Positions 2,628 through 43,431 of a stretch of 52,490 bases of DNA are shown in pieces. The position numbers and the translations under genes are program-made. The stretch spans positions 1 to 52,490 of the forward strand of contig JAJYGQ010000020.1 of assembly GCA_021785065.1 (NCBI GenBank). Direction: 5' to 3'. The notes under the pieces were generated by a model that worked only from the letters and a program-made list of their open reading frames with translations, did not search any database and had not been told where the DNA came from. Position 1 is the stretch's first letter. Every line of letters starts with the position of its first letter. Origin of the DNA: a bacterium (lineage in GTDB: Bacteria > Patescibacteriota > Minisyncoccia > Phycocordibacterales > JAKAEA01).

Positions 2628-3233
2628 CTAAATTATTTTATCTACAATGCCGTATTTTTTAGCTTCTTCGGCGGTTAAGAAATAGTCACGGTCAACATCT
2701 TTTTCTATTTTAGAAAGTGGTTGGCCGGTGTTTTCAGAAAGAATTTTATTGAGGCGTTCGCGGGTGCGTAGAATTTGCTTGGTGGTAATTTCAATATCAG
2801 CAGCTCGGCCTTCAGCGCCGCCCCAAGGCTGGTGGATCATTACTTCGGCATTAGGGAGAATTAGACGCTTGCCTTTTTGACCGGCTGAGAGCAGGAGAGC
2901 GCCAGCGGAAGCAGCCATGCCTACGCAGACGGTCGACACTTCAGGCTTGATATGGTTCATGGTGTCGAGAATAGCGAGCGCTGAGGTTACTGACCCGCCT
3001 GGTGAGTTGATATAAAGTGAAATATCTTTTTTTGAATCTTCTGATTGAAGGAAAAGGAGTTCGGCAATAATAATGTTAGCGACGTGGTCATCGATACCAC
3101 CACCGAGGAAGATTATCCGCTCACGCAAAAGGCGAGAATAAATATCATAGGCACGCTCACCAAATTGCGACTTCTCGATAACTGTAGGAATAAGAATTTG
3201 GCTATTGATTTGATCGGTTTTTTCTGATTTCAT
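2628..3233 (-). CDS. clpP: ATP-dependent Clp protease proteolytic subunit
   Basis: The 201-residue product is a serine peptidase of family S14. The nucleophile Ser lies in [14 protein letters not shown], the catalytic His in VMIHQPWGG, and the Asp in [20 protein letters not shown]. The oxyanion strand INSPGGSV is present. It would form the tetradecameric degradation chamber fed by ClpX or ClpA/C. A longer frame opens at 3275, but I chose MKSEKTDQ at 3233. The upstream ATG overlaps the rsmE start and lies upstream of the predicted -10 box, while the internal ATG sits about 10 bases after it. No ClpX gene is in the window. Confidence 0.96.
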
Positions 3234-3243
3234 AGGTGTGCGT

Positions 3244-3252
3244 ATTCTAGCA
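3244..3252 (-). promoter_or_regulatory. Extended -10 promoter of clpP
   Basis: The minus strand reads TGCTAGAAT, an extended -10 box, 10 bases before the clpP ATG at 3233. Transcription would start only about 4 bases upstream of the start codon, giving a nearly leaderless mRNA. This also excludes the longer ORF start at 3275. Confidence 0.55.
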
Positions 3253-3273
3253 CGAATATAAAAAATATCCATC

Positions 3274-3987
3274 ATGCGTATACATCGTTTTTATGTTACT
3301 GAAAGTGTTTCCAATTCTTTTTCTATTGGTGACACAATCTCTGTGCGGTCCCTTCCACTTGTTCATCAGTGGAAAAATGTTTTCCGTTTTGGTAGGGGAG
3401 ACGAAATAATTATTTTTAATGGAATAAGTGGTGAACAATACAGAGTGAGATTTTCGGAACTTACAAGCAAGGAAGCTAATTTGGAAATTCTTGAAAAGCA
3501 AAATGGTTTCGGTAGTCCATCTCGAGAAGTTACGCTCTACAGTGCTCTTATTAAAAAAGAGCGTTTCGAATGGATGGTAGAAAAAGCGACAGAAATTGGC
3601 GTATCCCATTTTTGTCCGCTTATTACCGAGCGAATCAAAATGGAAACTCTAAAGATCGAGAGGGCCCAAAAAATTATTATTGAAGCGACAGAACAATCTG
3701 GTTGGTGTCGTGTGCCGACGATTGTCGAACCACTATCGCTCAGCGTTGCATTAGATCAAGCAAAAAATCCTTTTGTGTGTGATGTTGGAGAGCCAGCCGC
3801 GAGGGTTTTGCCCAAAACCGCCGATCTATCTGAAATTAGTTTGTTTATTGGTCCTGAAGGCGGCTGGTCAGTAGCAGAAAGGGAATTGTTTGCCCAGAAA
3901 AAAATCCCTACGATTTCTCTCGGTCGCCAAACACTCCGCGCAGAAACAGCGGCCCTTGTTGCGGCGGCATTTACCCTTTTACCGTAG
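3274..3987 (+). CDS. rsmE: 16S rRNA (uracil-1498-N3)-methyltransferase
   Basis: This 237-residue protein fits the RsmE family (SPOUT superfamily, knotted SAM-binding fold). It has an N-terminal PUA-like part ([26 protein letters not shown]), a middle segment with [18 protein letters not shown], and the C-terminal signatures [10 protein letters not shown] and [17 protein letters not shown] that form the SAM-binding knot. It methylates U1498 at the decoding region of the small subunit. It is divergent from clpP and convergent with tig, whose 3' end it overlaps by 17 bases, a sign of tight packing. Confidence 0.95.
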
Positions 3988-5071
3988 TCGTCTCCAAAAA
4001 CGCAATAGTTTTTTCTAGTGTAAGAATGTGGCTGACGTAGCCTTCAACTTGCGCCGTATCAAGATCGGCGTGTTGACTCTTTAAGCGTCGCACCTCCTGC
4101 TCAATTTCAGCTGAGGAGGCTCGCAAATTTTCTTTGCGGGCAATTTCTTCGAGAATGAGCGTAGTTCGAGCTCGTTTTTCTGCTTCAGGCAGCCATTCTT
4201 TTTGAATATCCTCTCGAGTTTTTTTGATATGAGAAAGGTAGCTGTCTACCGAAAGACCAAGACGTCGGACGTCTTCCTCAAATTGGCCAATCATTCTGTT
4301 AAGTTCGTAATCTATAAGGGGCTGGGGGACGGGAAATTTTGTTTCTGCTAGTAATTTCTCCAGAATTTTGGCGCGGCGTTTTTCTAGGTGACGTTGTTTT
4401 TTTTCTTGTAGTAAATTCTCTTTTATTTTCTCGCGAAAGTCGGCGACAGAGTTAAAGTTACCAAGCGTTTTTACAAAATCATCGGTAATTTCCGGTTTGT
4501 GTTTTTCTAGTTCAGCGTCAGTGTGGTTGTGATTAGCCGCAGTGTCATCATGGTGAGCCTCGGTGTGTTTGTGAAGTTCCTGATGGGCGTAATTACTTCG
4601 CATATGTTCTATAACATCAGCAACTTCTTTATCGCTGACCACGATTTTTTCTTGCTCGGCAGCACTATTGCTCGCCGCGATTTCTTCCGCGGCAATTTTT
4701 TTGTAATCAGGGAGCTGTAGTGTGGGGCGTACTGCTACAAGAATTGAAAAACCAAGGGGATTATTGGGGGCGAGTTTTGTAATGGTAATTTTAGGGCGGG
4801 CAATGTATTGTGCCGCATGTTTTTCTACAAGTTCTGGAACAACTGTCTGTAGCGCTAATTCGGCGGCGTTTTCTAAGATAGCAGCCCCACCAACTTTTTC
4901 TACGAGAACTTGCTCGGGAATATGGCCCTGGCGAAAGCCAGGGATTTTAGCAGTCTGTCCAATTTTTTCCAGAGCTTTTTGTCGAAACGGAGCAAGAGCG
5001 GCTGGAGAAATCATTCCCGTAATCTCTACCTGAGAATTTTCTTTTGGGGTAACTGTAATATCTTCGTACAT
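3971..5071 (-). CDS. tig: Trigger factor lacking the PPIase domain, with a His-rich insert
   Basis: The 366 residues are shorter than the usual 430 or so. The ribosome-binding domain is clear, with the signature GFRQGHIPEQVL near residues 45-56. The C-terminal SurA-like chaperone arms are also present (DDFVKTLGNFNSVADFREKIKENL and the helices that follow). The FKBP-type peptidyl-prolyl isomerase domain expected in between is missing. Its place is taken by a linker of about 35 residues rich in His, Glu and Asp (HQELHKHTEAHHDD, then AANHNHTDAELEKHKP). Holding of nascent chains should remain; proline isomerisation should not. The start overlaps the ppa stop as TAATG, so translation is probably coupled. 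Confidence 0.9.
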   Translation of the reverse strand: MYEDITVTPKENSQVEITGMISPAALAPFRQKALEKIGQTAKIPGFRQGHIPEQVLVEKVGGAAILENAAELALQTVVPELVEKHAAQYIARPKITITKLAPNNPLGFSILVAVRPTLQLPDYKKIAAEEIAASNSAAEQEKIVVSDKEVADVIEHMRSNYAHQELHKHTEAHHDDTAANHNHTDAELEKHKPEITDDFVKTLGNFNSVADFREKIKENLLQEKKQRHLEKRRAKILEKLLAETKFPVPQPLIDYELNRMIGQFEEDVRRLGLSVDSYLSHIKKTREDIQKEWLPEAEKRARTTLILEEIARKENLRASSAEIEQEVRRLKSQHADLDTAQVEGYVSHILTLEKTIAFLETTTVKG

Positions 5072-5640
5072 TATTTTTTAGTGTTGTTAGTACTGCCAAA
5101 TTTTTTTTCATAGAGTTTAATACCGCGCGCGATCGCCGCAACAGCTGCTGCTTTATCAAGAATTTTATTAACTGTTACTACTACCGGTTTTCCTTTTAGT
5201 TGTTTGTAGGTTTCGTAAAAATGAGAAAATTCTTTTAAAGAGTGAGGATTGATATCAGCTAAATCTTTTACGTGTTCCCAACGACGATCCTCAACAGGAA
5301 CAGTAATTATTTTGTAATCAGATTCCCCGGAATCAGTAATGTCCATAACGGCTACGGGCCGAACTTTTACGAGAATGCCAGGAAAGAGGGGAAACGTAGA
5401 GAGAATAATAACATCGAGAGGGTCACCATCGTCCCAGAGAGTGCGCGGTGCGAGGCCGTAGTCAAACGGAAAAGGAGCATAAGAATAGTTTGCTCGATCA
5501 AGAGCGATAAGGCCAGTTTTTTTATCAATTTCGTATTTATTGTGTGAGCCGCGGGGTATTTCGACAATGGCATTAAACTCTTCGGGCACTGAATCACCAA
5601 GGGGGATATCGTGCCAATAACTCATTGCTGTATGGGACAT
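5071..5640 (-). CDS. ppa: Inorganic pyrophosphatase, family I
   Basis: The 189-residue soluble family I pyrophosphatase hydrolyses PPi to two phosphates, pulling nucleic acid and protein synthesis forward. Signatures are VEIPRGSHNKYEIDKKTG near the N terminus, the DYGLAPRTLWDDGDPLDVI block with the Asp residues that bind Mg2+, and KIITVPVEDRRWEHVKD. A second ATG five codons in (MSYWHDIP) is an alternative start. The stop overlaps the tig start (TAATG). The pair lies downstream of nusA on the same strand, with a gap of about 32 bases. Confidence 0.96.
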   Translation of the reverse strand: MSHTAMSYWHDIPLGDSVPEEFNAIVEIPRGSHNKYEIDKKTGLIALDRANYSYAPFPFDYGLAPRTLWDDGDPLDVIILSTFPLFPGILVKVRPVAVMDITDSGESDYKIITVPVEDRRWEHVKDLADINPHSLKEFSHFYETYKQLKGKPVVVTVNKILDKAAAVAAIARGIKLYEKKFGSTNNTKK

Positions 5641-5672
5641 AGTATTTTCGTTTTATTTATAAGCAATATAAA

Positions 5673-6875
5673 TTATACATTTTCCTCCGGTAATGTTGTT
5701 GCCAGTGGTGTTGTTTTACCCTCGATTTTTTGGGGTGTTTCGCCGGTGTCAATATTTTCTCCTTGTACTGATTGAATGTCGATGCGCCAACCGGTGAGTT
5801 TTGCTGCTAGACGAACGTTTTGTCCGCCCTTACCAATAGCCAACGACTGCTGGTCTTCAGAAACTGAAACAGCGGCGGTTTTGTTTTCCTCATCAATTAC
5901 CACATTAAGTGCGTGTGCTGGTGAAATAGCCTCTTCAACGAATCGCTTAGGATCTTCTGACCATTCAATGATATCTATTTTTTCTCCACCAAGCTCGCTG
6001 GTGACAGTGGCAACGCGGACGCCACGCTGACCGACGAGTGAACCAACGGGATCAACGTGCGGGTCATTGGAAAGAACGGCGATTTTTGATCGAGAACCAG
6101 CTTCTCGCGCCACGCTTTTAACCTCTATAACACCACTGGCAATTTCAGGAACCTCCATTTCAAAAAGTTTAATGAGGAATTTGGGATGCGATCGAGAAAG
6201 GCGGAGAAAAATGCCTCGTGGCGTTTCTTCAACTCGATAGAGATAGGCGCGAACACGTTCGCCTTGACGATATCGCTCACCGGGGATTTGCTCCTCGTAG
6301 GGTAAAATGCCGCTGGCTCGCCCCATGTCAACAAAAATATTGCCGCGCTCAATACGCTGCACAGTACCAGAGACAATCTCGCCCTCTCGCTCTCCAAACT
6401 CACCAAGTACGGAAACTTTTTCCGCCTCGCGAATTTTTTGGATAATAGTTTGCTTAGCGGTCTGTGAAGCAATGCGGCCGAAATCATCGCGGGTTTCTAG
6501 AGGAAATACAATTTCGTCGCCAATCTGAGAACCACGCTTTATCTTTTGAGCATCGTCGAGCAAAATATGGCGCTCTGGATTGAAAAGCACCTTTTCTGGT
6601 TCGTCGTCAGTTGTTTCAGGAATTTCTGGGAGGGTGCCATCAGGGTTAGGGGTAATAATTTGCTGTGGGTCGACAACAACTTTTACTTGGAAAAACTCAC
6701 TTTTACCGCTCTGTATGTCAAAAGTAGCCCGAATAATCTGGTGTTTTTTGCCATATTCTTTTTTATAGGCACTAGCAAGCGCAGCTTCTATAGCCTCAAT
6801 AATTTTTTCTCGCGGTATACCGCGCTCTTCCTCAAGTTCACCAAGGACTGAATTTATGGTTTTTAGATCAAACAT
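5673..6875 (-). CDS. nusA: Transcription termination/antitermination factor NusA
   Basis: The 400 residues show an N-terminal RNA polymerase-binding domain (IEAIEAALASAYKKEYG), an S1 domain (GEIVSGTVQRIERGNIFVDMG, about 165-230), and tandem KH domains. KH1 contains VGSLVGQRGVRV and KH2 contains SLAIGKGGQNVRLAAKLTGW. The C-terminal acidic repeats of E. coli NusA are absent, as in many bacteria. An insert of about 20 residues rich in Pro and Glu lies near residue 75-95. It modulates pausing, termination and antitermination. The 5' leader carries a strong hairpin just before the start codon. Confidence 0.96.
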   Translation of the reverse strand: MFDLKTINSVLGELEEERGIPREKIIEAIEAALASAYKKEYGKKHQIIRATFDIQSGKSEFFQVKVVVDPQQIITPNPDGTLPEIPETTDDEPEKVLFNPERHILLDDAQKIKRGSQIGDEIVFPLETRDDFGRIASQTAKQTIIQKIREAEKVSVLGEFGEREGEIVSGTVQRIERGNIFVDMGRASGILPYEEQIPGERYRQGERVRAYLYRVEETPRGIFLRLSRSHPKFLIKLFEMEVPEIASGVIEVKSVAREAGSRSKIAVLSNDPHVDPVGSLVGQRGVRVATVTSELGGEKIDIIEWSEDPKRFVEEAISPAHALNVVIDEENKTAAVSVSEDQQSLAIGKGGQNVRLAAKLTGWRIDIQSVQGENIDTGETPQKIEGKTTPLATTLPEENV

Positions 6876-6891
6876 AATTTTCTTTTAAAAA

Positions 6892-6914
6892 GAATTCGCC
6901 TCGTCGGCGAATTC
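6892..6914 (-). promoter_or_regulatory. Stem-loop at the 5' end of the nusA mRNA
   Basis: On the minus strand GAATTCGCC-GACGA-GGCGAATTC forms a perfect 9-bp stem followed by TTTTT, 16 bases before the nusA ATG. With the predicted start near 6920, the hairpin is the first structure in the transcript. It looks like a terminator but is probably too close to the start site to terminate. A 5' mRNA stabiliser or autoregulatory element is as likely. Confidence 0.6.
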
Positions 6915-6926
6915 AGGATTACACAC

Positions 6927-6954
6927 AGTATACACCCATAGAGCAGATTGTCAA
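6927..6954 (-). promoter_or_regulatory. Sigma-70-type promoter of nusA
   Basis: The minus strand has TTGACA (6954-6949), a 16-base spacer and TATACT (6932-6927), close to consensus. The expected start is near 6920. The -35 box overlaps the plus-strand -35 of pilB. Confidence 0.75.
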
Positions 6955-6977
6955 TCCGATGCCTTTAGTCGTATAAT
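6948..6977 (+). promoter_or_regulatory. Sigma-70-type promoter of the pilus operon
   Basis: TTGTCA (6948-6953), an 18-base spacer and TATAAT (6972-6977) lie 18 bases before the pilB ATG. The expected start is near 6984, giving a leader of about 11 bases without a Shine-Dalgarno sequence. The -35 overlaps that of nusA on the other strand. Confidence 0.7.
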
Positions 6978-6995
6978 TAACGGTACTATTGTTCT

Positions 6996-8750
6996 ATGCA
7001 TGCTGAAGAAACTCAACTAGCAAATTTTATTGTTGACTCCGGGCTACTCTCGAGGAGTGACATTGATGCTGTGTTGATGAAAGCGACAAAAGGTCACGTT
7101 CCACTCGGCCCGCTCCTTGTTAAAACCGGAAAAATCACGGATGACGAGGTTCGCAAAGCACAAGCTCATGTGCTCGGCATCCCTTTTGTTGATTTGAAGG
7201 GTAAAAAGCTTGATATGGCCGTACTCTCGCTTATTCCCGAGCCTATTGCCCGCAATCATAACATTGTGGCATTCAAAAAAGAGAACGACACACTCGAAGT
7301 GGCAATGTTGGATACAGAAGATCTCTCGGCTATCGACTTCATTAAGAAGAAAACAGGCTTACGAATTCTTCCTCGTCTTACCGACAATGAGTCTATAAAA
7401 GCAGCCCTGGTGCAATATCAAAAGAGTCTTAAGGCGGAATTTGGCGATATTATTCAAAAGGAAGTTGGCTCTATAAAGACGCTTGCTGAGCAAATGGGCG
7501 GCGATGCTAATAACGAAGCTGATCTTAAAAAACTTGCCGAAGACCTTCCTGTTGTTCGGGTCGTCGATACGTTACTGAAGCACGCTATTATTCAAGACGC
7601 TTCCGATATTCACATTGAGTCAATGGAAGAAGAAGTGTTGGTGCGATATCGCATTGACGGTATTTTGCATGATGCGATGGTGCTGCCTAAAAATGCTGGG
7701 CCGTCTATCACGGCGCGTATCAAGGTGCTCTCTAATTTGAAGCTTGATGAAAAACGTTTGCCGCAAGACGGTCGTTTTAAAGTTGAGATGAACGGGGAAA
7801 AAGTTTCTTTCCGTGTTTCTTTATTGCCAACGTACTACGGTGAAAAAACGGTCATGCGTCTTCTACGAGAAAATGTTAAAGGTTTTACCTTGGAAGTGCT
7901 CGGTTTTCATGGTCGCAATCTCGAACTCATTCATGAGGCTACCCGGTTGACTACTGGCATGATTTTAACTACGGGCCCTACCGGGTCTGGTAAAACAACT
8001 ACGCTCTATACAGTGCTCGATATTTTAAACACGCCTGACGTTAATATTTCTACCATTGAAGATCCTATCGAGTATCAAATGAGTCGAATTAATCAAACCC
8101 AGGTTAAGCCGGAAATTGGTTTTACCTTTGGAAGCGGTTTGCGCTCGTTAGTGCGTCAGGATCCAGATATTATTATGGTGGGCGAAATTCGTGACAATGA
8201 AACCGCTTCGCTGGCGGTTAATGCTGCGCTCACGGGCCACTTGGTTTTATCTACGCTGCACACCAACTCATCGGCGGGCGCCATACCGCGTCTTGTAGAT
8301 ATGAAGGTTGAGCCATTTCTTATCGTCTCTACAGTAAGTATCGTCATCGGCCAGCGGCTCATTCGCCGGCTCACTGCTCAAAAAGAGGAATATTTTCTTT
8401 CTGACGCGGAAGTAAAACAACTTGAGCGGGTGGTCGATCTTGATCGCATGCTCCATATTTTAAAAGAAGAAAAAATTATCGGTAAAGATACCGATTGGAA
8501 AAAAATTCCTTTCTACAAAGCTAAGCCATCATCGGAGTCGGAGGATGGTTTCAAAGGGCGCGTTGGTATTCATGAAGTATTAAAAATGACGCCAACCATT
8601 CGCGATCTCGTTATGCGCGAAAGCAACTCGGCTGATATTGAAGCGCAAGCTAAAAAAGAAGGCATGATTACCATGGTTGAGGATGGTATTTTTAAAGCAG
8701 TGTCCGGTTTGACCACGATTGAGGAAGTATTGCGGGTGGTATCTGAATAA
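6996..8750 (+). CDS. pilB: Type IV pilus assembly ATPase PilB (GspE/PulE family)
   Basis: The 584-residue extension ATPase has an N-terminal MshEN-like region (1-150) and a RecA-like secretion ATPase core. The core shows Walker A GPTGSGKTTT, the Asp box (TIEDPIEYQ), Walker B region DPDIIMVGEIRD and the His box TGHLVLSTLHTNSS. The tetracysteine zinc motif present in many PilB proteins is missing; the matching C-terminal stretch (about 460-520) is a charged helical segment without Cys. It powers pilin polymerisation at the inner membrane. It is first in an operon with pilC and the minor pilins. No retraction ATPase PilT is in the window. Confidence 0.95.
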   Translation: MHAEETQLANFIVDSGLLSRSDIDAVLMKATKGHVPLGPLLVKTGKITDDEVRKAQAHVLGIPFVDLKGKKLDMAVLSLIPEPIARNHNIVAFKKENDTLEVAMLDTEDLSAIDFIKKKTGLRILPRLTDNESIKAALVQYQKSLKAEFGDIIQKEVGSIKTLAEQMGGDANNEADLKKLAEDLPVVRVVDTLLKHAIIQDASDIHIESMEEEVLVRYRIDGILHDAMVLPKNAGPSITARIKVLSNLKLDEKRLPQDGRFKVEMNGEKVSFRVSLLPTYYGEKTVMRLLRENVKGFTLEVLGFHGRNLELIHEATRLTTGMILTTGPTGSGKTTTLYTVLDILNTPDVNISTIEDPIEYQMSRINQTQVKPEIGFTFGSGLRSLVRQDPDIIMVGEIRDNETASLAVNAALTGHLVLSTLHTNSSAGAIPRLVDMKVEPFLIVSTVSIVIGQRLIRRLTAQKEEYFLSDAEVKQLERVVDLDRMLHILKEEKIIGKDTDWKKIPFYKAKPSSESEDGFKGRVGIHEVLKMTPTIRDLVMRESNSADIEAQAKKEGMITMVEDGIFKAVSGLTTIEEVLRVVSE

Positions 8751-8751
8751 T

Positions 8752-9972
8752 ATGACGACGTTTCAAGTTCACACTATTGATCGTGAGGGCGTGTCGCATG
8801 ACGAAACGATGGAGGTGGGGGATCGTGCTTCGCTCTATGCAAGTCTCAAGGCAAAAGGTTCAACGCTCGTGTCGCTTACCGAAACAGGAAAAAAATCGAA
8901 ATCAATACTTTCGATGGATATTCCGTTTCTCAGTAAAGTAAAGCTTCACGATAAGATTATTTTTAGCCGTAATCTGGCAGCGATGCTTGATGCTGGGTTG
9001 CCACTCTCTCGGGCATTAACGGTTATCGAAAAGCAGACAACGCAAAAAAAATTTAAGGATCTCGTTATCGCGCTGAACACGAGCATTAGTGGAGGCACTA
9101 CATTGAGCGCGGCTATGAAGGAGCATAGTGATACATTTTCTTCAATTATGATTTCGATGGTAAAGGCCGGTGAAGAATCCGGATCCCTTTCACAATCGCT
9201 CCGAATCGTTGCTAATCAAATGGAAAGTTCCTATACACTGTTGCGCAAGGTTCGAGGCGCGCTCATGTATCCAGTTATTGTACTCTCAGCTATGGTTGTT
9301 ATTGCTTTTTTTATGCTTACGAATGTTGTGCCCACTCTTGCTTCAACCTTTCAAAGTTTTCATGCGCAGCTGCCGCTGCAGACACAGCTCATTATTGATG
9401 TGAGTAATTTTCTAAAAACTTATATCGTGTATGTGTTGATCGCTATTGTTGCAGGAATTGCTTCACTCTATGTCTTTATGCGCACCGCATCAGGTAAAAG
9501 AACAATGAGTTTTGTATACCTGCATACGCCAGTGCTGGGAGAAATTGTTAAAGAAGTTAATTCGGCGCGAACAGCCAGGACACTTTCCTCGCTTTTGTCA
9601 TCCGGCGTTGATTTTTTAGTAGCGGTTCGTATTACCACTGACGTATTGCAAAATCCATACTACAAAGAAGTCATTGCCTTGGTTGAAAAGAAAGTTCAGA
9701 AAGGTGAACCGATTGCTGAAATTTTTAATGAACGAGCAAAACTCTATCCACCATTTGTTGGGGAAATGGTTTCGGTGGGCGAGGAAACCGGTCAATTACC
9801 ACAAATGCTTCTCGGTGTGGCGACGTTCTACGAAAACGATGTCGACCAAAAAACCAAAGACCTCTCCTCTATTATTGAGCCGGTGCTTATGATTATTATG
9901 GGTATTGCGGTCGGATTCTTTGCTATTTCGATCATTAGCCCAATTTATTCTCTCAGCAGTGTCATTTCATAA
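8752..9972 (+). CDS. pilC: Type IV pilus inner-membrane platform protein PilC (GspF family)
   Basis: The 406-residue protein has the duplicated T2SSF architecture: two helical cytosolic domains (about 60-185 and 265-390), each starting near a FSRNLAAMLDAGLPLSRAL or ARTLSSLLSSGVDFLVAV type helix. Hydrophobic spans include YPVIVLSAMVVIAFFMLT and the C-terminal IIEPVLMIIMGIAVGFFAISII. The start MTTFQVH at 8752 follows the pilB stop as TAATATG. A longer frame from 8719 would overlap pilB and is less likely. It forms the membrane platform on which PilB assembles the pilus. Confidence 0.95.
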   Translation: MTTFQVHTIDREGVSHDETMEVGDRASLYASLKAKGSTLVSLTETGKKSKSILSMDIPFLSKVKLHDKIIFSRNLAAMLDAGLPLSRALTVIEKQTTQKKFKDLVIALNTSISGGTTLSAAMKEHSDTFSSIMISMVKAGEESGSLSQSLRIVANQMESSYTLLRKVRGALMYPVIVLSAMVVIAFFMLTNVVPTLASTFQSFHAQLPLQTQLIIDVSNFLKTYIVYVLIAIVAGIASLYVFMRTASGKRTMSFVYLHTPVLGEIVKEVNSARTARTLSSLLSSGVDFLVAVRITTDVLQNPYYKEVIALVEKKVQKGEPIAEIFNERAKLYPPFVGEMVSVGEETGQLPQMLLGVATFYENDVDQKTKDLSSIIEPVLMIIMGIAVGFFAISIISPIYSLSSVIS

Positions 9973-38627: not shown

Positions 38628-41471
38628 ATGGAAGTTACCAAAAACCCTGAAGGAGCGCCTGGACGGGGGGCGATGACGCCAGCAGAAGAGCTCGAATATT
38701 TACGTCGTGAAGTAGCGCGCCGAGAAAAAGAATTAGGTGGTAGTGGTGTACCGTTAGAGCGTGACGCGGTTATTACTGAACAAATCCACCACTATAAAGC
38801 GGCTCCAGTCGAAAAAGTACTCCATCCGGTAGCGCGTATGGAATCAGGGGCGGTGCAAAAAGTAGTGCTCAATCTTTCACCTGAGCCGCACGATGCAAAA
38901 ATGACTGAGCTCCTGGCAATTCTTAATGAAAAAGGAATTAAAAACGCGCTGCGTGTTGTCGAGGGCCTCAATGATCCGCACGTGGAAGACGACTTCCATC
39001 GTTTTTTGGTGCAGTATGTGAAGAGTGGTTATCCAGTAACTGGCCTCGTACCACGCTCCGAGCTTTTTCAAGCGCTACACATGACACTATATGAAGTGTC
39101 ATTACCTGATGCCGAGACCAGTAATCAGCGTCCCCTTAAGGAACTCATTTCGGCAATGGAACAATTTTACGCGGGTATGTTTTTTGTCGATACTGTTAAA
39201 AAAGGAGGGCTAGCAAGGTTTTTTGATAGTGAAAAAAAATATCCCCCGCCCTTTTCCCTTGAAATCGCCAAACCTAATCATAGCCAAGAAGCTGTTATTT
39301 TTGCGGGAATTCCTGATGATCAGAAAGTTCTCTTTGAAAAACAAATTGTGGCATTATTTCCACGAGCAAAAATTAAAGAGGTTGCCGACGACTATAATAT
39401 TTTTACCGAGCCGAGTGATACGGCTGGCGCCGTGGCTACATTTGCTAAGTACGCAGCATATCCACTTAAAACATACGAAAAATTTGACCATGACCCACTC
39501 AATGTCATTTTAAATACTTTTTCGAAGATTCAAAAGGACAATGAGGGGGCGGCGGTGCAGATTGTCTTTCGTTCTAGCCGGACAAAATATCAGGAAAATT
39601 ATCAGCGTATTATTGAAGGCGTTAGTAAGGGTAAGCCCATTAAAGAGCTGTTGCCTAAAGGCTGGAGTGAGGAATTTTGGGGTGAATTAAAGGAGACATT
39701 TTTTGAAAAATCAGCTGAAGAAAAGAAGAAGAGTGAACCTGTGACGGTCGATCAAAATCTCTTGACGGTGTTAAACGAAAAAGTGAGTGCGCCGATGTGT
39801 GAGGTTAATATTCGCTTACTTGTCTCTGCTGCAATACCTATGGATGCTGAACGAATTTTAAATGAATTGGAAGCCTCATTTAATCAATTTGAAAATACGC
39901 TCGGTAATAAACTTATTTTTAAGCGAGTAACAGGAAAAAAAGTGGAAAAACTTGCCGAGAAATTTTCTTTTCGAGAGTTTTCCGAAGAAAATATTGTACC
40001 GATCAATTTTAAAGAGGCAACGACACTTTTCCATTTTCCGGAGCGAATTGCCGGCGCCGCGCCGCAGGTGCGGCAGGCTCGGTCCGGCGCGGCGCCGGCC
40101 CCCATAGATTTACCGCAAGAAGGCACATTGCTCGGCGTGAATCGTTTTCGCAATCTCGACACCAAAGCTTACATAACCAAAGAAGATCGCTTACGCCACT
40201 TCTACGTCATTGGTCAAACTGGCACCGGTAAAACCACGTTGCTTAAAAACATGATTGTCCAGGATATCGAGCAGGGTGAGGGAGTGTGTATGATTGATCC
40301 TCACGGGACCGACATCGTTGACGTCTTAGCAAACATACCGAAGAGTCGCTATGAAGATGTTATTTATTTTGATCCAAGCTATACCCCGCGCCCCATGGGG
40401 CTCAATATGCTCGAATATGACCAAAATTTTCCTGAGCAAAAAACTTTCGTCGTTAACGAATTACTCAGTATCTTTAAAAAACTTTATGGGGCGGTGCCAG
40501 AGAGTATGGGGCCAGCCTTCGAACAATATTTTCGTAACTCAGCGCTCCTGGTAATGGATCATCCTGAATCGGGCAATACACTTCTCGACGTATCACGCGT
40601 CCTTTCGGACAAGGAATACAGAAAATTCAAACTTTCCGTATGTAAAAATCCGCTGGTCAGCCAATTTTGGACCAATGCTGAAAAAACCACCGGTGAGCAG
40701 GGCCTTGCTAACTACGTGCAATATGTCACTAATAAATTCGATGTCTTTTTGGCGAACGATATTATGCGACCAGTGGTGGCTCAAGAACATTCCTCATTCA
40801 ATTTCCGCGATATTATGGATAATCGCAAGATTTTGCTGGTGAATCTGGCGAAGGGCAAACTTGGCGACATTAACGCTAATCTGATCGGCCTTATTTTAAT
40901 CGGCAAGATTTTAATGGCTGCACTTTCGCGTGTTGATTCTGTTGGTAAAAATCTGCCACCTTTTTATCTCTATGTTGATGAATTTCAAAATGTGACGACC
41001 GATTCAATCGCTACCATTCTTTCGGAAGCTCGCAAGTATAAATTGTCGCTTTCTATTGCTCACCAGTTTATTGCCCAGCTGCAAGAGAGTATTCGTGACG
41101 CGGTATTTGGTAACGTCGGCTCACTCGGTGTGTTTCGAGTGGGAAGCGCTGACGCAGAATTTTTAGAAAAACAGTTTGCACCAACGTTTAAAGCAACTGA
41201 TATTGTAAATATTGAGAATCGTAACGCATATCTTAAATTACTGGTGAACGGCCGGCCGGCGGCGCCCTTTAACATTGAAACCTTGCCGCCGCCGGCCGGC
41301 GACCCCACTAAGCTCGATGCTCTGAAACAGCTTTCGTACCTTAAATATGGTCGCGACAGAGCCACGGTTGAGGCGGAAATAATGGCAAAATACAAAAAAG
41401 TTGAAACTCTCTCAAACTCTCCCGCAGCTGTTCGCCGCTTAGAAACTAAGCCGATAGAATTAACAGACTGA
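38628..41471 (+). CDS. HerA/TraG-like conjugative-type ATPase with C-terminal DNA-pump domain
   Basis: The 947-residue protein has a soluble N-terminal half (to about 490) with an acidic and charged start and no clear membrane helix. The C-terminal half is an FtsK/HerA/TraG-class motor: Walker A FYVIGQTGTGKTTLLKN near residue 530, GVCMIDPHGTD, Walker B LYVDEFQNVTTDSIATILSEARKY, and a Gln-rich sensor region IAHQFIAQLQESIRDAVFG. The family appears in type IV secretion coupling and in pili-associated DNA or protein pumps; exact role unknown. An Ala/Pro-rich linker (about 475-500) is encoded by a GC-rich inverted repeat, and a second such repeat lies near the 3' end. No relaxase or other secretion genes are visible nearby. 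Confidence 0.85.
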   Translation: MEVTKNPEGAPGRGAMTPAEELEYLRREVARREKELGGSGVPLERDAVITEQIHHYKAAPVEKVLHPVARMESGAVQKVVLNLSPEPHDAKMTELLAILNEKGIKNALRVVEGLNDPHVEDDFHRFLVQYVKSGYPVTGLVPRSELFQALHMTLYEVSLPDAETSNQRPLKELISAMEQFYAGMFFVDTVKKGGLARFFDSEKKYPPPFSLEIAKPNHSQEAVIFAGIPDDQKVLFEKQIVALFPRAKIKEVADDYNIFTEPSDTAGAVATFAKYAAYPLKTYEKFDHDPLNVILNTFSKIQKDNEGAAVQIVFRSSRTKYQENYQRIIEGVSKGKPIKELLPKGWSEEFWGELKETFFEKSAEEKKKSEPVTVDQNLLTVLNEKVSAPMCEVNIRLLVSAAIPMDAERILNELEASFNQFENTLGNKLIFKRVTGKKVEKLAEKFSFREFSEENIVPINFKEATTLFHFPERIAGAAPQVRQARSGAAPAPIDLPQEGTLLGVNRFRNLDTKAYITKEDRLRHFYVIGQTGTGKTTLLKNMIVQDIEQGEGVCMIDPHGTDIVDVLANIPKSRYEDVIYFDPSYTPRPMGLNMLEYDQNFPEQKTFVVNELLSIFKKLYGAVPESMGPAFEQYFRNSALLVMDHPESGNTLLDVSRVLSDKEYRKFKLSVCKNPLVSQFWTNAEKTTGEQGLANYVQYVTNKFDVFLANDIMRPVVAQEHSSFNFRDIMDNRKILLVNLAKGKLGDINANLIGLILIGKILMAALSRVDSVGKNLPPFYLYVDEFQNVTTDSIATILSEARKYKLSLSIAHQFIAQLQESIRDAVFGNVGSLGVFRVGSADAEFLEKQFAPTFKATDIVNIENRNAYLKLLVNGRPAAPFNIETLPPPAGDPTKLDALKQLSYLKYGRDRATVEAEIMAKYKKVETLSNSPAAVRRLETKPIELTD
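40050..40099. repeat. 50-bp GC-rich inverted repeat inside the ATPase gene
   Basis: Arms of 15 bp (GCCGGCGCCGCGCCG at 40050-40064 and its exact complement at 40085-40099) flank a 20-base loop. It encodes part of the Ala/Pro/Arg linker between the two halves of the ATPase. The G+C richness differs strongly from flanking AT-rich codons. Confidence 0.9.
41251..41300. repeat. Second 50-bp GC-rich inverted repeat inside the ATPase gene
   Basis: Arms of 14 bp (GCCGGCCGGCGGCG at 41251-41264 and its exact complement at 41287-41300) flank a 22-base loop. It encodes GRPAAPFN and PPPAGD near the C terminus. It spans 50 bases like the first repeat and begins 1201 bases after it. Confidence 0.9.
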
Positions 41472-41481
41472 TCTAAAAATG

Positions 41482-41490
41482 TGCTACAAT
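41482..41490 (+). promoter_or_regulatory. Extended -10 promoter of the small paralog cassette
   Basis: TGC-TACAAT lies 29 bases before the ATG at 41520, giving a leader of about 23 bases. Confidence 0.5.
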
Positions 41491-41519
41491 GGGCTTGTTA
41501 ATATAAAATACATAAATTT

Positions 41520-41810
41520 ATGGAGGGAATGGAAAGCCAACAGGATCTTGTAAAACGAAGTCCGGAACAGGCTGGGAATATAGAAAAAATTGTTGAAACG
41601 CACCAAGAGCGTCGCGCCGGTCTGTTTCGTCGCGTTGTTAGTGGCGGTTTAGACATTGTGCCCGGCGTTGGTATGGTAAAAACGGGTATTGAGGCAATAG
41701 CCGGTAGAACTATGGGTGGAAGAAAATTGACAGGCACGGGTCGTCTTGTACACGCTGGGCTTGGTCTAACTGGAGTGGGTGGTTTTGTACAGGCTGCTGA
41801 AGAACTATAG
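41520..41810 (+). CDS. Unknown 96-residue protein, paralog A (single hydrophobic hairpin domain)
   Basis: I do not recognise a named function. The first 35 residues are charged (QERRAGLFRRVV); then a Gly-rich amphipathic or hydrophobic stretch reads GLDIVPGVGMVKTGIEAIAG, RKLTGTGRLVHAGLGLTGVG. This part is homologous to residues 20-85 of the next gene. The pattern DIVPGVGxxK...EAIxG....G.KLT..R resembles the pre-toxin TG motif of polymorphic toxins; this rests on memory, not a search. It lies 7 bases before the next gene and after the ATPase, in a small cluster of short proteins. A membrane-active or scaffold role is possible. Confidence 0.7.
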   Translation: MEGMESQQDLVKRSPEQAGNIEKIVETHQERRAGLFRRVVSGGLDIVPGVGMVKTGIEAIAGRTMGGRKLTGTGRLVHAGLGLTGVGGFVQAAEEL

Positions 41811-41817
41811 CACCGTC

Positions 41818-42342
41818 ATGACAAAAGAAGGATCACCGGAAAGAACACAAAACAAACAAACCTCTCCCGAGAAACTTGAACGAGACCGAGTCATCGAAGA
41901 GGCGCAAAAAAAGCGCAGTGGTATTTTTATGCGAAACTTAAGCAGAGGTTTTAATTTCGTGCCAGTTCTTGGTGGTGTAAAAATGGCTGCCGAAGCGGCT
42001 GTCGGCTCGACATTGGAAAGGGGGAAAATGAGCGGCACTCAGCGCCTTATTCATGGAGCTGTGGGTGTGGGTAGTATTATTTTAGACGCGAGTGATCTCG
42101 TTGATTTTGGTGCTGGCACAGTCGAAGGAGAAGGTTTAAAAGTGGCTGGTATGGAAGCTGAAATGACAACTGAAAAGGTAGCGACCGTTCTGGAAAAGAC
42201 AAGCTCGATGCTGGCTGAACGTGGCCAATCGGGTATTGCTAAGATTTTTCTTCGCACAGGGCGGTTGATAAGGGATAATCCTAAATTTGCTCAAAAAGCC
42301 GTGGCCGCCATTAAGGATTATAAGTCTAAGCCGGAGAAGTAA
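41818..42342 (+). CDS. Unknown 174-residue protein, paralog B (hairpin domain plus helical C-terminal domain)
   Basis: The start is taken at MTKEGSPERTQ (41818), 7 bases after the previous stop; a longer frame from 41779 overlaps that gene. Residues of about 27-95 (KKRSGIFMRNLSRGFNFVPVL, MAAEAAVG, GKMSGTQRLIHGAVGVGS) are clearly related to paralog A. The C-terminal part of about 45 residues (ERGQSGIAKIFLRTGRLIRD, AQKAVAAIKDYKS) is related to the separate 68-residue protein encoded next. The gene is thus a two-domain version of its neighbours. Function unknown; no enzyme motif is visible. Confidence 0.75.
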   Translation: MTKEGSPERTQNKQTSPEKLERDRVIEEAQKKRSGIFMRNLSRGFNFVPVLGGVKMAAEAAVGSTLERGKMSGTQRLIHGAVGVGSIILDASDLVDFGAGTVEGEGLKVAGMEAEMTTEKVATVLEKTSSMLAERGQSGIAKIFLRTGRLIRDNPKFAQKAVAAIKDYKSKPEK

Positions 42343-42380
42343 AAAGTGTTGAAAGAGGAGATTGCTTAAAAGTATCAGCG

Positions 42381-42389
42381 TGCTACGAT
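42381..42389 (+). promoter_or_regulatory. Extended -10 promoter, leaderless arrangement (68-residue ORF)
   Basis: TGC-TACGAT ends 6 bases before the ATG at 42396, the same geometry as the ATPase gene. Confidence 0.5.
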
Positions 42390-42395
42390 AGTAAC

Positions 42396-42602
42396 ATGGG
42401 TACCATGAGTAAACAAAATAGTGCGGTAGAAAAACATATTGCTCTTTTAAAAGCCGCGGCTCATGCTGCAAAAGAGAAAGGCAACATTCCAATGGCCAAA
42501 ATACTACAGCGCACGGCTCAATTTATTGCCGACCACTCGGTAATTGCCAATGAGGCGCTTGAGACCTATGCAGCACAACTTATTTCAAATAGTAAAGAAT
42601 AA
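42396..42602 (+). CDS. Unknown 68-residue helical protein, paralog C
   Basis: The product is all-helical and Ala/Lys-rich. Its segment KEKGNIPMAKILQRTAQFIAD, ANEAL lines up with the C-terminal end of paralog B (E.G....AKI..RT...I.D......A), about one third identical over 33 positions by eye. A second ATG at 42405 is an alternative start. It has its own predicted promoter. No function known. Confidence 0.7.
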   Translation: MGTMSKQNSAVEKHIALLKAAAHAAKEKGNIPMAKILQRTAQFIADHSVIANEALETYAAQLISNSKE

Positions 42603-42614
42603 TAAAACAGTATC

Positions 42615-42806
42615 ATGACCAAAGACGAACGCGAAAATGTGGTGAATCAGCTGGTGGCTCTTGGAGAAGATAGCGATGAACTCCAATACTGGCTGGATAT
42701 TTATGAATATTTATCACCGGAGTTACAGAAAGAATTGGCAGACAATCTCAACGAAGAATTAGAAGCTATTAAAGCTGAAGATGGTAAGAGTAAAAAAAAC
42801 GAGTGA
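42615..42806 (+). CDS. Unknown 63-residue acidic helical protein
   Basis: The small ORF reads MTKDERENVVNQLVALGEDS and continues ELQYWLDIYEYLSPELQKEL, ending with an acidic then Lys-rich tail. It is likely real: it starts 12 bases after the previous stop and its end overlaps ndk by 26 bases in another frame. It is predicted to be mostly helix and could be a small adaptor. No family is recognised. Confidence 0.6.
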   Translation: MTKDERENVVNQLVALGEDSDELQYWLDIYEYLSPELQKELADNLNEELEAIKAEDGKSKKNE

Positions 42807-43431
42807 CGCGGATATACTGAAGCCCAATCCTCATCCGTCGCGTGAACGCACACTCGTTCTCATCAAGCCCGATGGTGTTCAGCGTTCGCTCGTTGGTGAA
42901 ATTATCCGTCGCTATGAGCGTGCTGGCCTCAAGCTCATCGCTCTTAAAATGCTTGTTCCCACTAAAGAGCAGATCGAAGGTCACTACACCCTCGATCCCC
43001 AATGGCGCCGCGTAACAGGTGAGAAAACTATTAAAAGCTACCTTGATAAAGGTATTGAGCCACCCACTAAAGATCCGTTAGAAGTAACGAAAATTCTCCT
43101 TGAACGGTTAGCTCGCTATATGACCTCGGGACCAATTATTGCCGCTATTTGGCAGGGAGCTCATGCGGTAGCTATTGTTCGGAAGTTGACAGGCAGTACC
43201 GAGCCACTTACTTCTGATGTAGGAACTATTCGGGGTGATTTTGTGCTCGACTCATATCAAATGACTGATGCTGATGGTCGTTGTATTCGCAACCTCGTGC
43301 ACGCATCGGGTTCACCAGCTGAAGCAGAGCAAGAGATTGTCCACTGGTTTTCGCCGGCCGAACTCATTAATTATCGCCTTATTGCTGAACAAATTCTCTA
43401 TGACGTTAATCTGGACGGTATGCTTGAATAA
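42781..43431 (+). CDS. ndk: Nucleoside diphosphate kinase (extended form)
   Basis: The 216 residues are longer than the usual 140-150. The core is clear: RTLVLIKPDGVQRSLVGEIIRRYERAGL (key parts TLVLIKPDGVQR and GEIIRRYE), AHAVAIVRKLTGSTEP, GTIRGDF, and the active-site His in NLVHASGSPAEAEQEIVHWF. The family motif SDS reads SGS here. The added length lies in a 30-40-residue insert (YLDKGIEPPTKDPLEVTKIL) in the middle and at both ends. The enzyme transfers phosphate between nucleoside di- and triphosphates through the phospho-His. It overlaps the upstream small ORF by 26 bases. Confidence 0.92.
   Translation: MVRVKKTSDADILKPNPHPSRERTLVLIKPDGVQRSLVGEIIRRYERAGLKLIALKMLVPTKEQIEGHYTLDPQWRRVTGEKTIKSYLDKGIEPPTKDPLEVTKILLERLARYMTSGPIIAAIWQGAHAVAIVRKLTGSTEPLTSDVGTIRGDFVLDSYQMTDADGRCIRNLVHASGSPAEAEQEIVHWFSPAELINYRLIAEQILYDVNLDGMLE

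What the first reader, a model, noticed from the sequence alone, without database searches (positions are those of the whole stretch)
41520..42602. Three-gene cassette built from two swappable domains beside a HerA/TraG-like ATPase
Gene A (96 residues) carries only a Gly-rich hairpin domain. Gene B (174 residues) carries the same domain plus a helical C-terminal domain. Gene C (68 residues) carries only the helical domain. The hairpin resembles a pre-toxin TG motif (D-I-V-P-G-V-G...K...EAI.G), but no toxin domain follows. This modular split next to a conjugation-type motor, plus a small acidic protein, suggests an undescribed secreted or membrane-active system.
Basis: partly seen in the sequence, partly recalled or inferred. 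Interest (0 to 1): 0.68.

Follow-up and report, generated by a model that had tools for sequence, protein, structure and literature searches.

The report
Undescribed two-gene module, locally duplicated
Four tiny genes inserted between two housekeeping genes of a small-genome bacterium turn out to be an expanded copy of an undescribed, patchily spread two-gene module: a helical protein built on a 'pre-toxin' hairpin, paired with a small acidic partner.

Summary
Gene A (N-helix + TG hairpin), gene B (N-helix + TG hairpin + three-helix domain) and gene C (three-helix domain alone) are real and related; A passes Pfam's PT-TG cut-off. The neighbouring ATPase is a backbone VirD4-like gene, found in 31 of 31 relatives, typically in a secY-adk-map-ATPase-ndk block. 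In a same-genus genome it runs straight into ndk, so the cassette is a ~1.44 kb insertion. The same module elsewhere has no such ATPase beside it.

The true partner is the 'small acidic protein' D (63 aa). I found 12 further D loci in 11 genomes; D directly follows a B-like gene (once only a B remnant), overlapping it by 4-26 nt in 8 of 12. In 384 class genomes, exactly the same six carry B and D. D has no significant match in Pfam, NCBIfam, PHROGs, PDB or PADLOC. The pair is sporadic and sits at unrelated sites, once beside a serine recombinase and a tRNA.

Best reading: an accessory, mobile, effector-like module in which the coupled acidic partner D holds B (antidote or chaperone). Here A and C are partial duplicates of B. 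Co-inheritance is shown; toxicity and binding are inferred.

The parts
41520..41810 (+). gene A: N-terminal helix + PT-TG hairpin only (partial paralogue of B)
   Evidence: PF14449 27.1 bits vs cut-off 23.5; 39% identical to B
41818..42342 (+). gene B: N-helix + TG hairpin + C-terminal three-helix domain (core member of the module)
   Evidence: full-length homologues upstream of D in 11 other loci; AF2 pLDDT 71.9
42396..42602 (+). gene C: three-helix domain alone (partial paralogue of the B C-terminus)
   Evidence: profile of B/L062/L107 C-terminal domain hits C at E 5.2e-7, best of 5000 shuffles 0.042
42615..42806 (+). gene D: 63-aa acidic protein (pI 4.2), partner of B-like proteins
   Evidence: strong profile hits only beside B-like genes; invariant L13 G17 E22 W26 Q38 E48 in 12 sequences
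41400..42843 (.). approximate limits of the insertion relative to the same-genus genome G001
   Evidence: blastn collinearity with G001 stops at 41399 and resumes at 42844; no flanking repeats
41480..41492 (+). TGTGCTACAATGG, extended -10-like motif upstream of A (consensus match only)
   Evidence: only two matches in the window, 0.23 expected
42379..42391 (+). CGTGCTACGATAG, same motif immediately upstream of C (consensus match only)
38628..41471 (+). VirD4/TraG/HerA-like ATPase; conserved backbone gene, not part of the module
42781..43431 (+). nucleoside diphosphate kinase (ndk), backbone gene on the other side of the insertion; its annotated start overlaps the end of D
   Evidence: next to the ATPase in many relatives and overlapping it in G001; the name rests on general knowledge of the sequence

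Best explanation
The cassette is an expanded copy of a sporadic, horizontally moving two-gene module, here called B-D. Shown: B has a conserved N-terminal helix (E-x-A-x3-R pattern), a PT-TG hairpin and usually a helical C-terminal domain (all-helical in the predicted model). D is a ~60-residue acidic protein encoded immediately downstream, usually overlapping. The two are co-inherited and occur in 1-2% of sampled genomes at unrelated sites. In this genome the module lies inserted between the ATPase and ndk genes, and B is partly duplicated: A resembles its N-terminal half, C its C-terminal half. Inferred: D binds the newly made, often basic and partly hydrophobic B and keeps it soluble and inactive; without D, B would engage the membrane or another target. 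B-D thus works like an effector with its cognate antidote/chaperone, used against competitors or mobile elements, or as self-maintaining cargo.
For: Co-occurrence: B-like profile in 6 of 384 class genomes and D profile with strong hits in exactly the same 6; chance of a full match about 2e-13 if independent. Phylum sample: five further genomes with strong D hits, full-length B directly upstream in four (G855 with two copies) and an N-terminal remnant in the fifth; G914 added. Gene spacing from 26 nt overlap to 6 nt gap. B and D distances correlate, Mantel r 0.61, p 1e-4, n 12. D always acidic (pI 4.2-4.9); 6 of 12 B-like proteins, A included, have pI above 8. Patchy inside genera and families: G855 yes, G684 no; 1 of 6 in the family of G326; 1 of 8 in genus g552. 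B core 58% identical between genomes of two different classes (G914 and G316). In G316 the module is followed by a serine recombinase and a tRNA-Arg. Clean insertion in the window against G001. PT-TG is at home in bacterial toxins (PMC10941976, PMC3482391).
Against: No toxic domain was recognised; no canonical glycine zipper in any member. D is more conserved than B (mean column identity 41% in A6; 28% in A7), whereas immunity proteins usually diverge with their toxins. Hydrophobicity of B is modest (best 19-residue mean 1.2-1.8 where above 1.2). B in several genomes is not basic (pI 4.9-6.2). No binding or toxicity data exist.
Confidence: 0.42

Rival explanations
1. D is a dedicated chaperone/export partner and B is a secreted or surface substrate (as LXG toxins carry small helical partners that bind their transport region). 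The TG + helix region is the carrier and may bear cargo domains in some genomes.
For: In G316 the B-like core heads a much longer protein (465-aa ORF, with a second ORF before D) and in G914 it has a ~115-aa N-terminal extension, while D stays the same, so D follows the TG core and not the cargo. D is better conserved than B. In the PT-TG protein EsaD, small helical partners bind the N-terminal transport region (PMC10653861).
Against: No LXG, WXG100, signal peptide or secretion gene is linked to the module. Most B-like proteins carry no cargo at all. The linked ATPase is a fixed backbone gene.
Confidence: 0.25
2. B-D is a non-toxic accessory complex, for instance a membrane-associated or regulatory pair, spread by ordinary gene gain and loss.
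For: All-helical model without an evident active site; no toxic or enzymatic domain recognised; G564 keeps D with only the N-terminal segment of B, suggesting that D acts through that segment.
Against: Extreme patchiness within genera and the mobile-element context fit conflict or selfish cargo better than a physiological role.
Confidence: 0.25
3. A and C are decaying remnants of B copies with no function of their own; the working unit in this genome is just B-D. (Compatible with any of the readings above.)
For: Outside the window no locus read has separate A- or C-like genes; A is like the N-terminal half and C like the C-terminal half of B.
Against: Both are open with plausible starts. A scores better against PT-TG than B does. 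A and C share an extended -10-like motif found nowhere else in the window.
Confidence: 0.4
4. One reading: a secreted or membrane-active system coupled to the HerA/TraG-like motor.
For: Adjacency in this one genome; the ATPase is VirD4-like.
Against: The ATPase is in 31/31 relatives, none of those read having the cassette, and the module is elsewhere beside secA-like, rplT-infC, recombinase and other genes. VirD4 homologues are very common in Patescibacteria and rarely near virB4 (PMC12102498).
Confidence: 0.03

Closest known systems
PT-TG (pre-toxin TG) domain, Pfam PF14449, of polymorphic toxins such as EsaD and RHS-type toxins
   Same: A passes the family cut-off; B, L107 and others match below it; shared pattern of a hydrophobic-Pro-Gly start, K, E-A-x-x-G and a later R
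   Different: Here the domain is the core of a small standalone protein with a dedicated downstream partner; no trafficking domain before it and no toxin domain after it
LXG/T7SSb effectors with small partner proteins (EsaD-EsaE-EsxBCD-EsaG; PMC10653861)
   Same: PT-TG protein encoded beside small partners
   Different: No LXG domain found and no WXG100-like partner; D matches none of the profiles searched
Glycine-zipper membrane toxins with immunity proteins (TelE-TipE, PMC10434224; EsxX-ExiAB, PMC12744356)
   Same: A Gly-rich, partly hydrophobic helical segment plus a small neutralising partner is a possible way of working
   Different: No GxxxGxxxG motif in any member; D is ~60 aa, TipE is 151 aa
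Type II toxin-antitoxin operons
   Same: Two small overlapping genes, acidic partner, sporadic distribution, links to mobile DNA, D with truncated B in G564
   Different: No known toxin or antitoxin domain; toxicity untested

Membership tests
PT-TG domain (PF14449) | profile score above Pfam's gathering cut-off | tested here: met
   gene A 27.1 bits vs 23.5. Gene B alone is 13.4 bits, below the cut-off, but is 39% identical to A.
Polymorphic toxin | C-terminal toxin domain after the pre-toxin domain | tested here: not met
   no Pfam, NCBIfam or PADLOC match after the TG region in A or B
Polymorphic toxin | N-terminal trafficking domain (LXG, RHS, PAAR, signal peptide) | tested here: not met
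   no family match in A or B apart from PT-TG; N-termini are charged, with no hydrophobic leader
Polymorphic toxin | immunity gene directly downstream | tested here: inconclusive
   D lies directly downstream of B-like genes, but its function is untested
Glycine-zipper pore-forming toxin | GxxxGxxxG motif in a hydrophobic helix | tested here: not met
   no match in A, B or 13 relatives
Type II toxin-antitoxin | two small, overlapping or adjacent, co-inherited genes | tested here: met
Type II toxin-antitoxin | known toxin or antitoxin domain | tested here: not met
   no significant match in Pfam, NCBIfam or PADLOC
Type II toxin-antitoxin | one product toxic, the other neutralises it by binding | not testable with these tools
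   needs expression and co-purification
Conjugation / type IV secretion cargo tied to the neighbouring ATPase | conserved ATPase-A-B-C neighbourhood | tested here: not met
   ATPase in 31/31 relatives, B found in G000 only of 98 relatives; homologous modules lie elsewhere

The most novel reading that the evidence does not exclude
B-D is a new kind of mobile conflict module of small-genome bacteria: the PT-TG hairpin, elsewhere only a linker before toxins, is itself the active, membrane-engaging part, held in check by a new acidic antidote family (D). It can be split and duplicated into separate hairpin (A) and helical (C) subunits.
Probability: 0.2. Interest if true: 0.8.

Novelty: new variant of a known kind. 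Interest (0 to 1): 0.5.

Why it matters
The PT-TG domain is found in many bacterial toxins and its function is described as unknown (PMC10941976). A short natural protein that is little more than this domain, with one constant partner, is a simple system in which to learn what the domain does. If B is toxic and D its antidote, it would be a new conflict module in bacteria that are thought to live on other bacteria. Even if it is not toxic, D defines a new protein family with a clear partner, so its function can be tested directly.

Tried and rejected
Scans of genome contigs and viral contigs with B, A and D found no relatives, nor did tblastn in plasmids and phages. A weak PT-TG hit in G103 (L004) looks like chance: no other feature of the module is there. 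Fold searches with the B model gave no significant match (Foldseek E >= 0.19; best VIA-align Z 5.4 over 46 residues of the three-helix part only; viral library E >= 0.33); helical pairs of this kind are common and I draw nothing from them. The first AF2 run with 8 sequences was poor (pLDDT 56). Base composition of the insertion does not stand out in G+C, only in GC skew. No flanking direct or inverted repeats. Promoter-like sites from the generic scan were no more than chance. No Rfam element in the region apart from the tmRNA. PADLOC hits of the ATPase (HerA, mad8) I take to reflect the generic ATPase domain. D-like hits in G699, G245 and G292 are weak or broken and were not counted.

Full report
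What is there. On the + strand between a 947-residue ATPase gene (38628-41471) and ndk (42781-43431) lie four small genes: A 41520-41810, B 41818-42342, C 42396-42602 and D 42615-42806. A and B share an N-terminal helix and a Gly-rich hairpin (39% identity over 83 columns, E 2e-15). A passes Pfam's cut-off for PT-TG, PF14449, with 27.1 bits against 23.5; B falls below it. C resembles only the C-terminal part of B. Pairwise this is weak, but a profile made from B and two distant relatives finds C at E 5.2e-7, while the best of 5000 shuffles reaches 0.042.

The ATPase is not part of it. It matches HerA, VirD4 and TraG profiles and a relative is present in 31 of 31 genomes searched. In many of them it lies in a block secY-adk-map-ATPase-ndk-membrane protein-beta-CASP hydrolase (names and general knowledge of the sequences). 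In the same-genus genome G001 (secY 96% identical) the ATPase end overlaps the ndk start and nothing lies between. Nucleotide collinearity stops at window position 41399 and resumes at 42844. The cassette is thus an insertion of about 1.44 kb, without flanking repeats. A published survey found 5,713 VirD4 homologues in 2,918 Patescibacteria genomes, only a minority near virB4 (PMC12102498), which fits a general backbone gene.

The conserved unit is B plus D. A profile of A and B over 384 genomes of the class found six genomes. In each of the five other loci the TG protein is followed directly by a homologue of D; in G316 a second ORF, apparently the continuation of a split gene, comes between. 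A D profile over the same 384 genomes gave strong hits (E < 1e-25) in exactly the same six and two weak ones elsewhere. The chance of such a match is about 2e-13 if the two were independent. The D profile was built from D genes found beside B, so what this shows is the absence of recognisable D elsewhere, not an independent discovery. A D profile over 380 genomes of the phylum found five further genomes with strong hits: G564, G597, G855 with two copies, G870 and G878. In all but G564 a full-length B-like protein of 177-196 residues lies directly upstream. In G564 only a 75-residue N-terminal remnant remains. G914, found in the class of G855, has B with a ~115-residue N-terminal extension and D one base further on. 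In all there are 12 loci in 11 genomes outside the window. The genes overlap by 4-26 nt in 8 loci and are 1-6 nt apart in the other 4. Distance matrices of B and D correlate (Mantel r 0.61, p 1e-4, n 12), as expected for genes that travel together.

D. All members are 55-69 residues, pI 4.2-4.9 where computed (G914 member), with L13, G17, E22, W26, Q38 and E48 (window numbering) invariant in twelve sequences. There is no significant match in Pfam, NCBIfam, PHROGs, the PDB or PADLOC.

B. The AlphaFold2 model with 14 sequences (pLDDT 71.9) is all-helical: N-helix 17-45, TG hairpin as helix 49-62, tight turn, helix 73-97, and a three-helix domain 118-170 at pLDDT about 85. Gene C corresponds to this last domain. 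Fold searches were not informative. No member has the GxxxGxxxG glycine zipper, and no toxin domain is recognised. Most B-like proteins have one moderately hydrophobic segment after the hairpin turn.

Distribution and mobility. The module is rare (about 1-2% of genomes in each broad sample) and patchy at close range: present in G855 but not G684 of the same genus, in 1 of 6 genomes of one family, in 1 of 8 genomes of genus g552. The B core of G914 is 58% identical to that of G316 in another class, against 38% to the window's B. In G316 D is followed by a serine recombinase and then a tRNA-Arg. In G914 a tRNA-Arg lies ~560 bases before the first small gene of the cluster, and in G455 a tRNA-Ser ~100 bases before B. 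The tRNA associations were not tested against background. Together these facts point to horizontal movement.

PT-TG proteins without D also exist in the phylum: RHS-type proteins with C-terminal extensions (G621, G827), large proteins over 1000 residues (G666, G719, G823) and a 340-residue protein in G855. The D-paired branch is therefore one use of the domain among several.

How it most likely works. Shown: a constant, closely coupled gene pair spread sporadically, partly duplicated here into A and C. Inferred: D binds B as it is made and keeps a sticky or harmful helical protein in check. The antidote reading is favoured by the sporadic, mobile distribution, the pre-toxin homology and the G564 locus with D and only a B remnant. 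The chaperone/export reading is favoured by the better conservation of D and by D accompanying the TG core whatever extension B carries, as in G316 and G914. I give the antidote-or-chaperone reading 0.42 as the leading statement and list the purer export and non-toxic readings as rivals. That B-D is a real conserved module I hold at about 0.95.

Limits.

Noticed in passing
L062 (G316:C22) 4702-7346: The B-like protein here is part of a long gene (465-aa ORF, then a 284-aa ORF) that looks split; the second ORF has no Pfam match above cut-off. It is followed by D, a serine recombinase and a tRNA-Arg.
   Followed up: partly
L084 (G855:C7) 5034-6056 (-): A 340-aa protein with a good PT-TG match (29.9 bits), no toxin domain after it and no D beside it, in a genome that has two B-D modules elsewhere.
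   Followed up: partly
L117 (G914) 9139-9312: A 57-aa helical-looking ORF overlaps the start of the B gene; a possible third partner in that genome.
   Followed up: no
L085 (G245) 3856-4035: A 59-aa protein weakly like D (E 2e-5) without a B gene, after a short basic ORF; possibly an orphan D.
   Followed up: partly
L070, L072, L073 (G823, G666, G719): Proteins over 1000 residues with a PT-TG domain in the middle and no evident toxin domain; not searched further.
   Followed up: no
window 41480-41492 and 42379-42391: The same extended -10-like motif (GTGCTAC[AG]AT[AG]G) precedes A and C and, within one mismatch of the pattern used, is found nowhere else in the window; C would then have an almost leaderless transcript.
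   Followed up: partly
L053 (G003) 3184-3591 (-), L043 (G010) 6755-7060, L048 (G023) 6914-7216 (-): Other, apparently unrelated small ORFs occupy the same ATPase-ndk gap in other relatives, so this junction may be a minor insertion hot spot.
   Followed up: partly
window 41500-42500: GC skew is clearly higher (0.23-0.26) inside the cassette than in its immediate flanks, while G+C is about the same.
   Followed up: no
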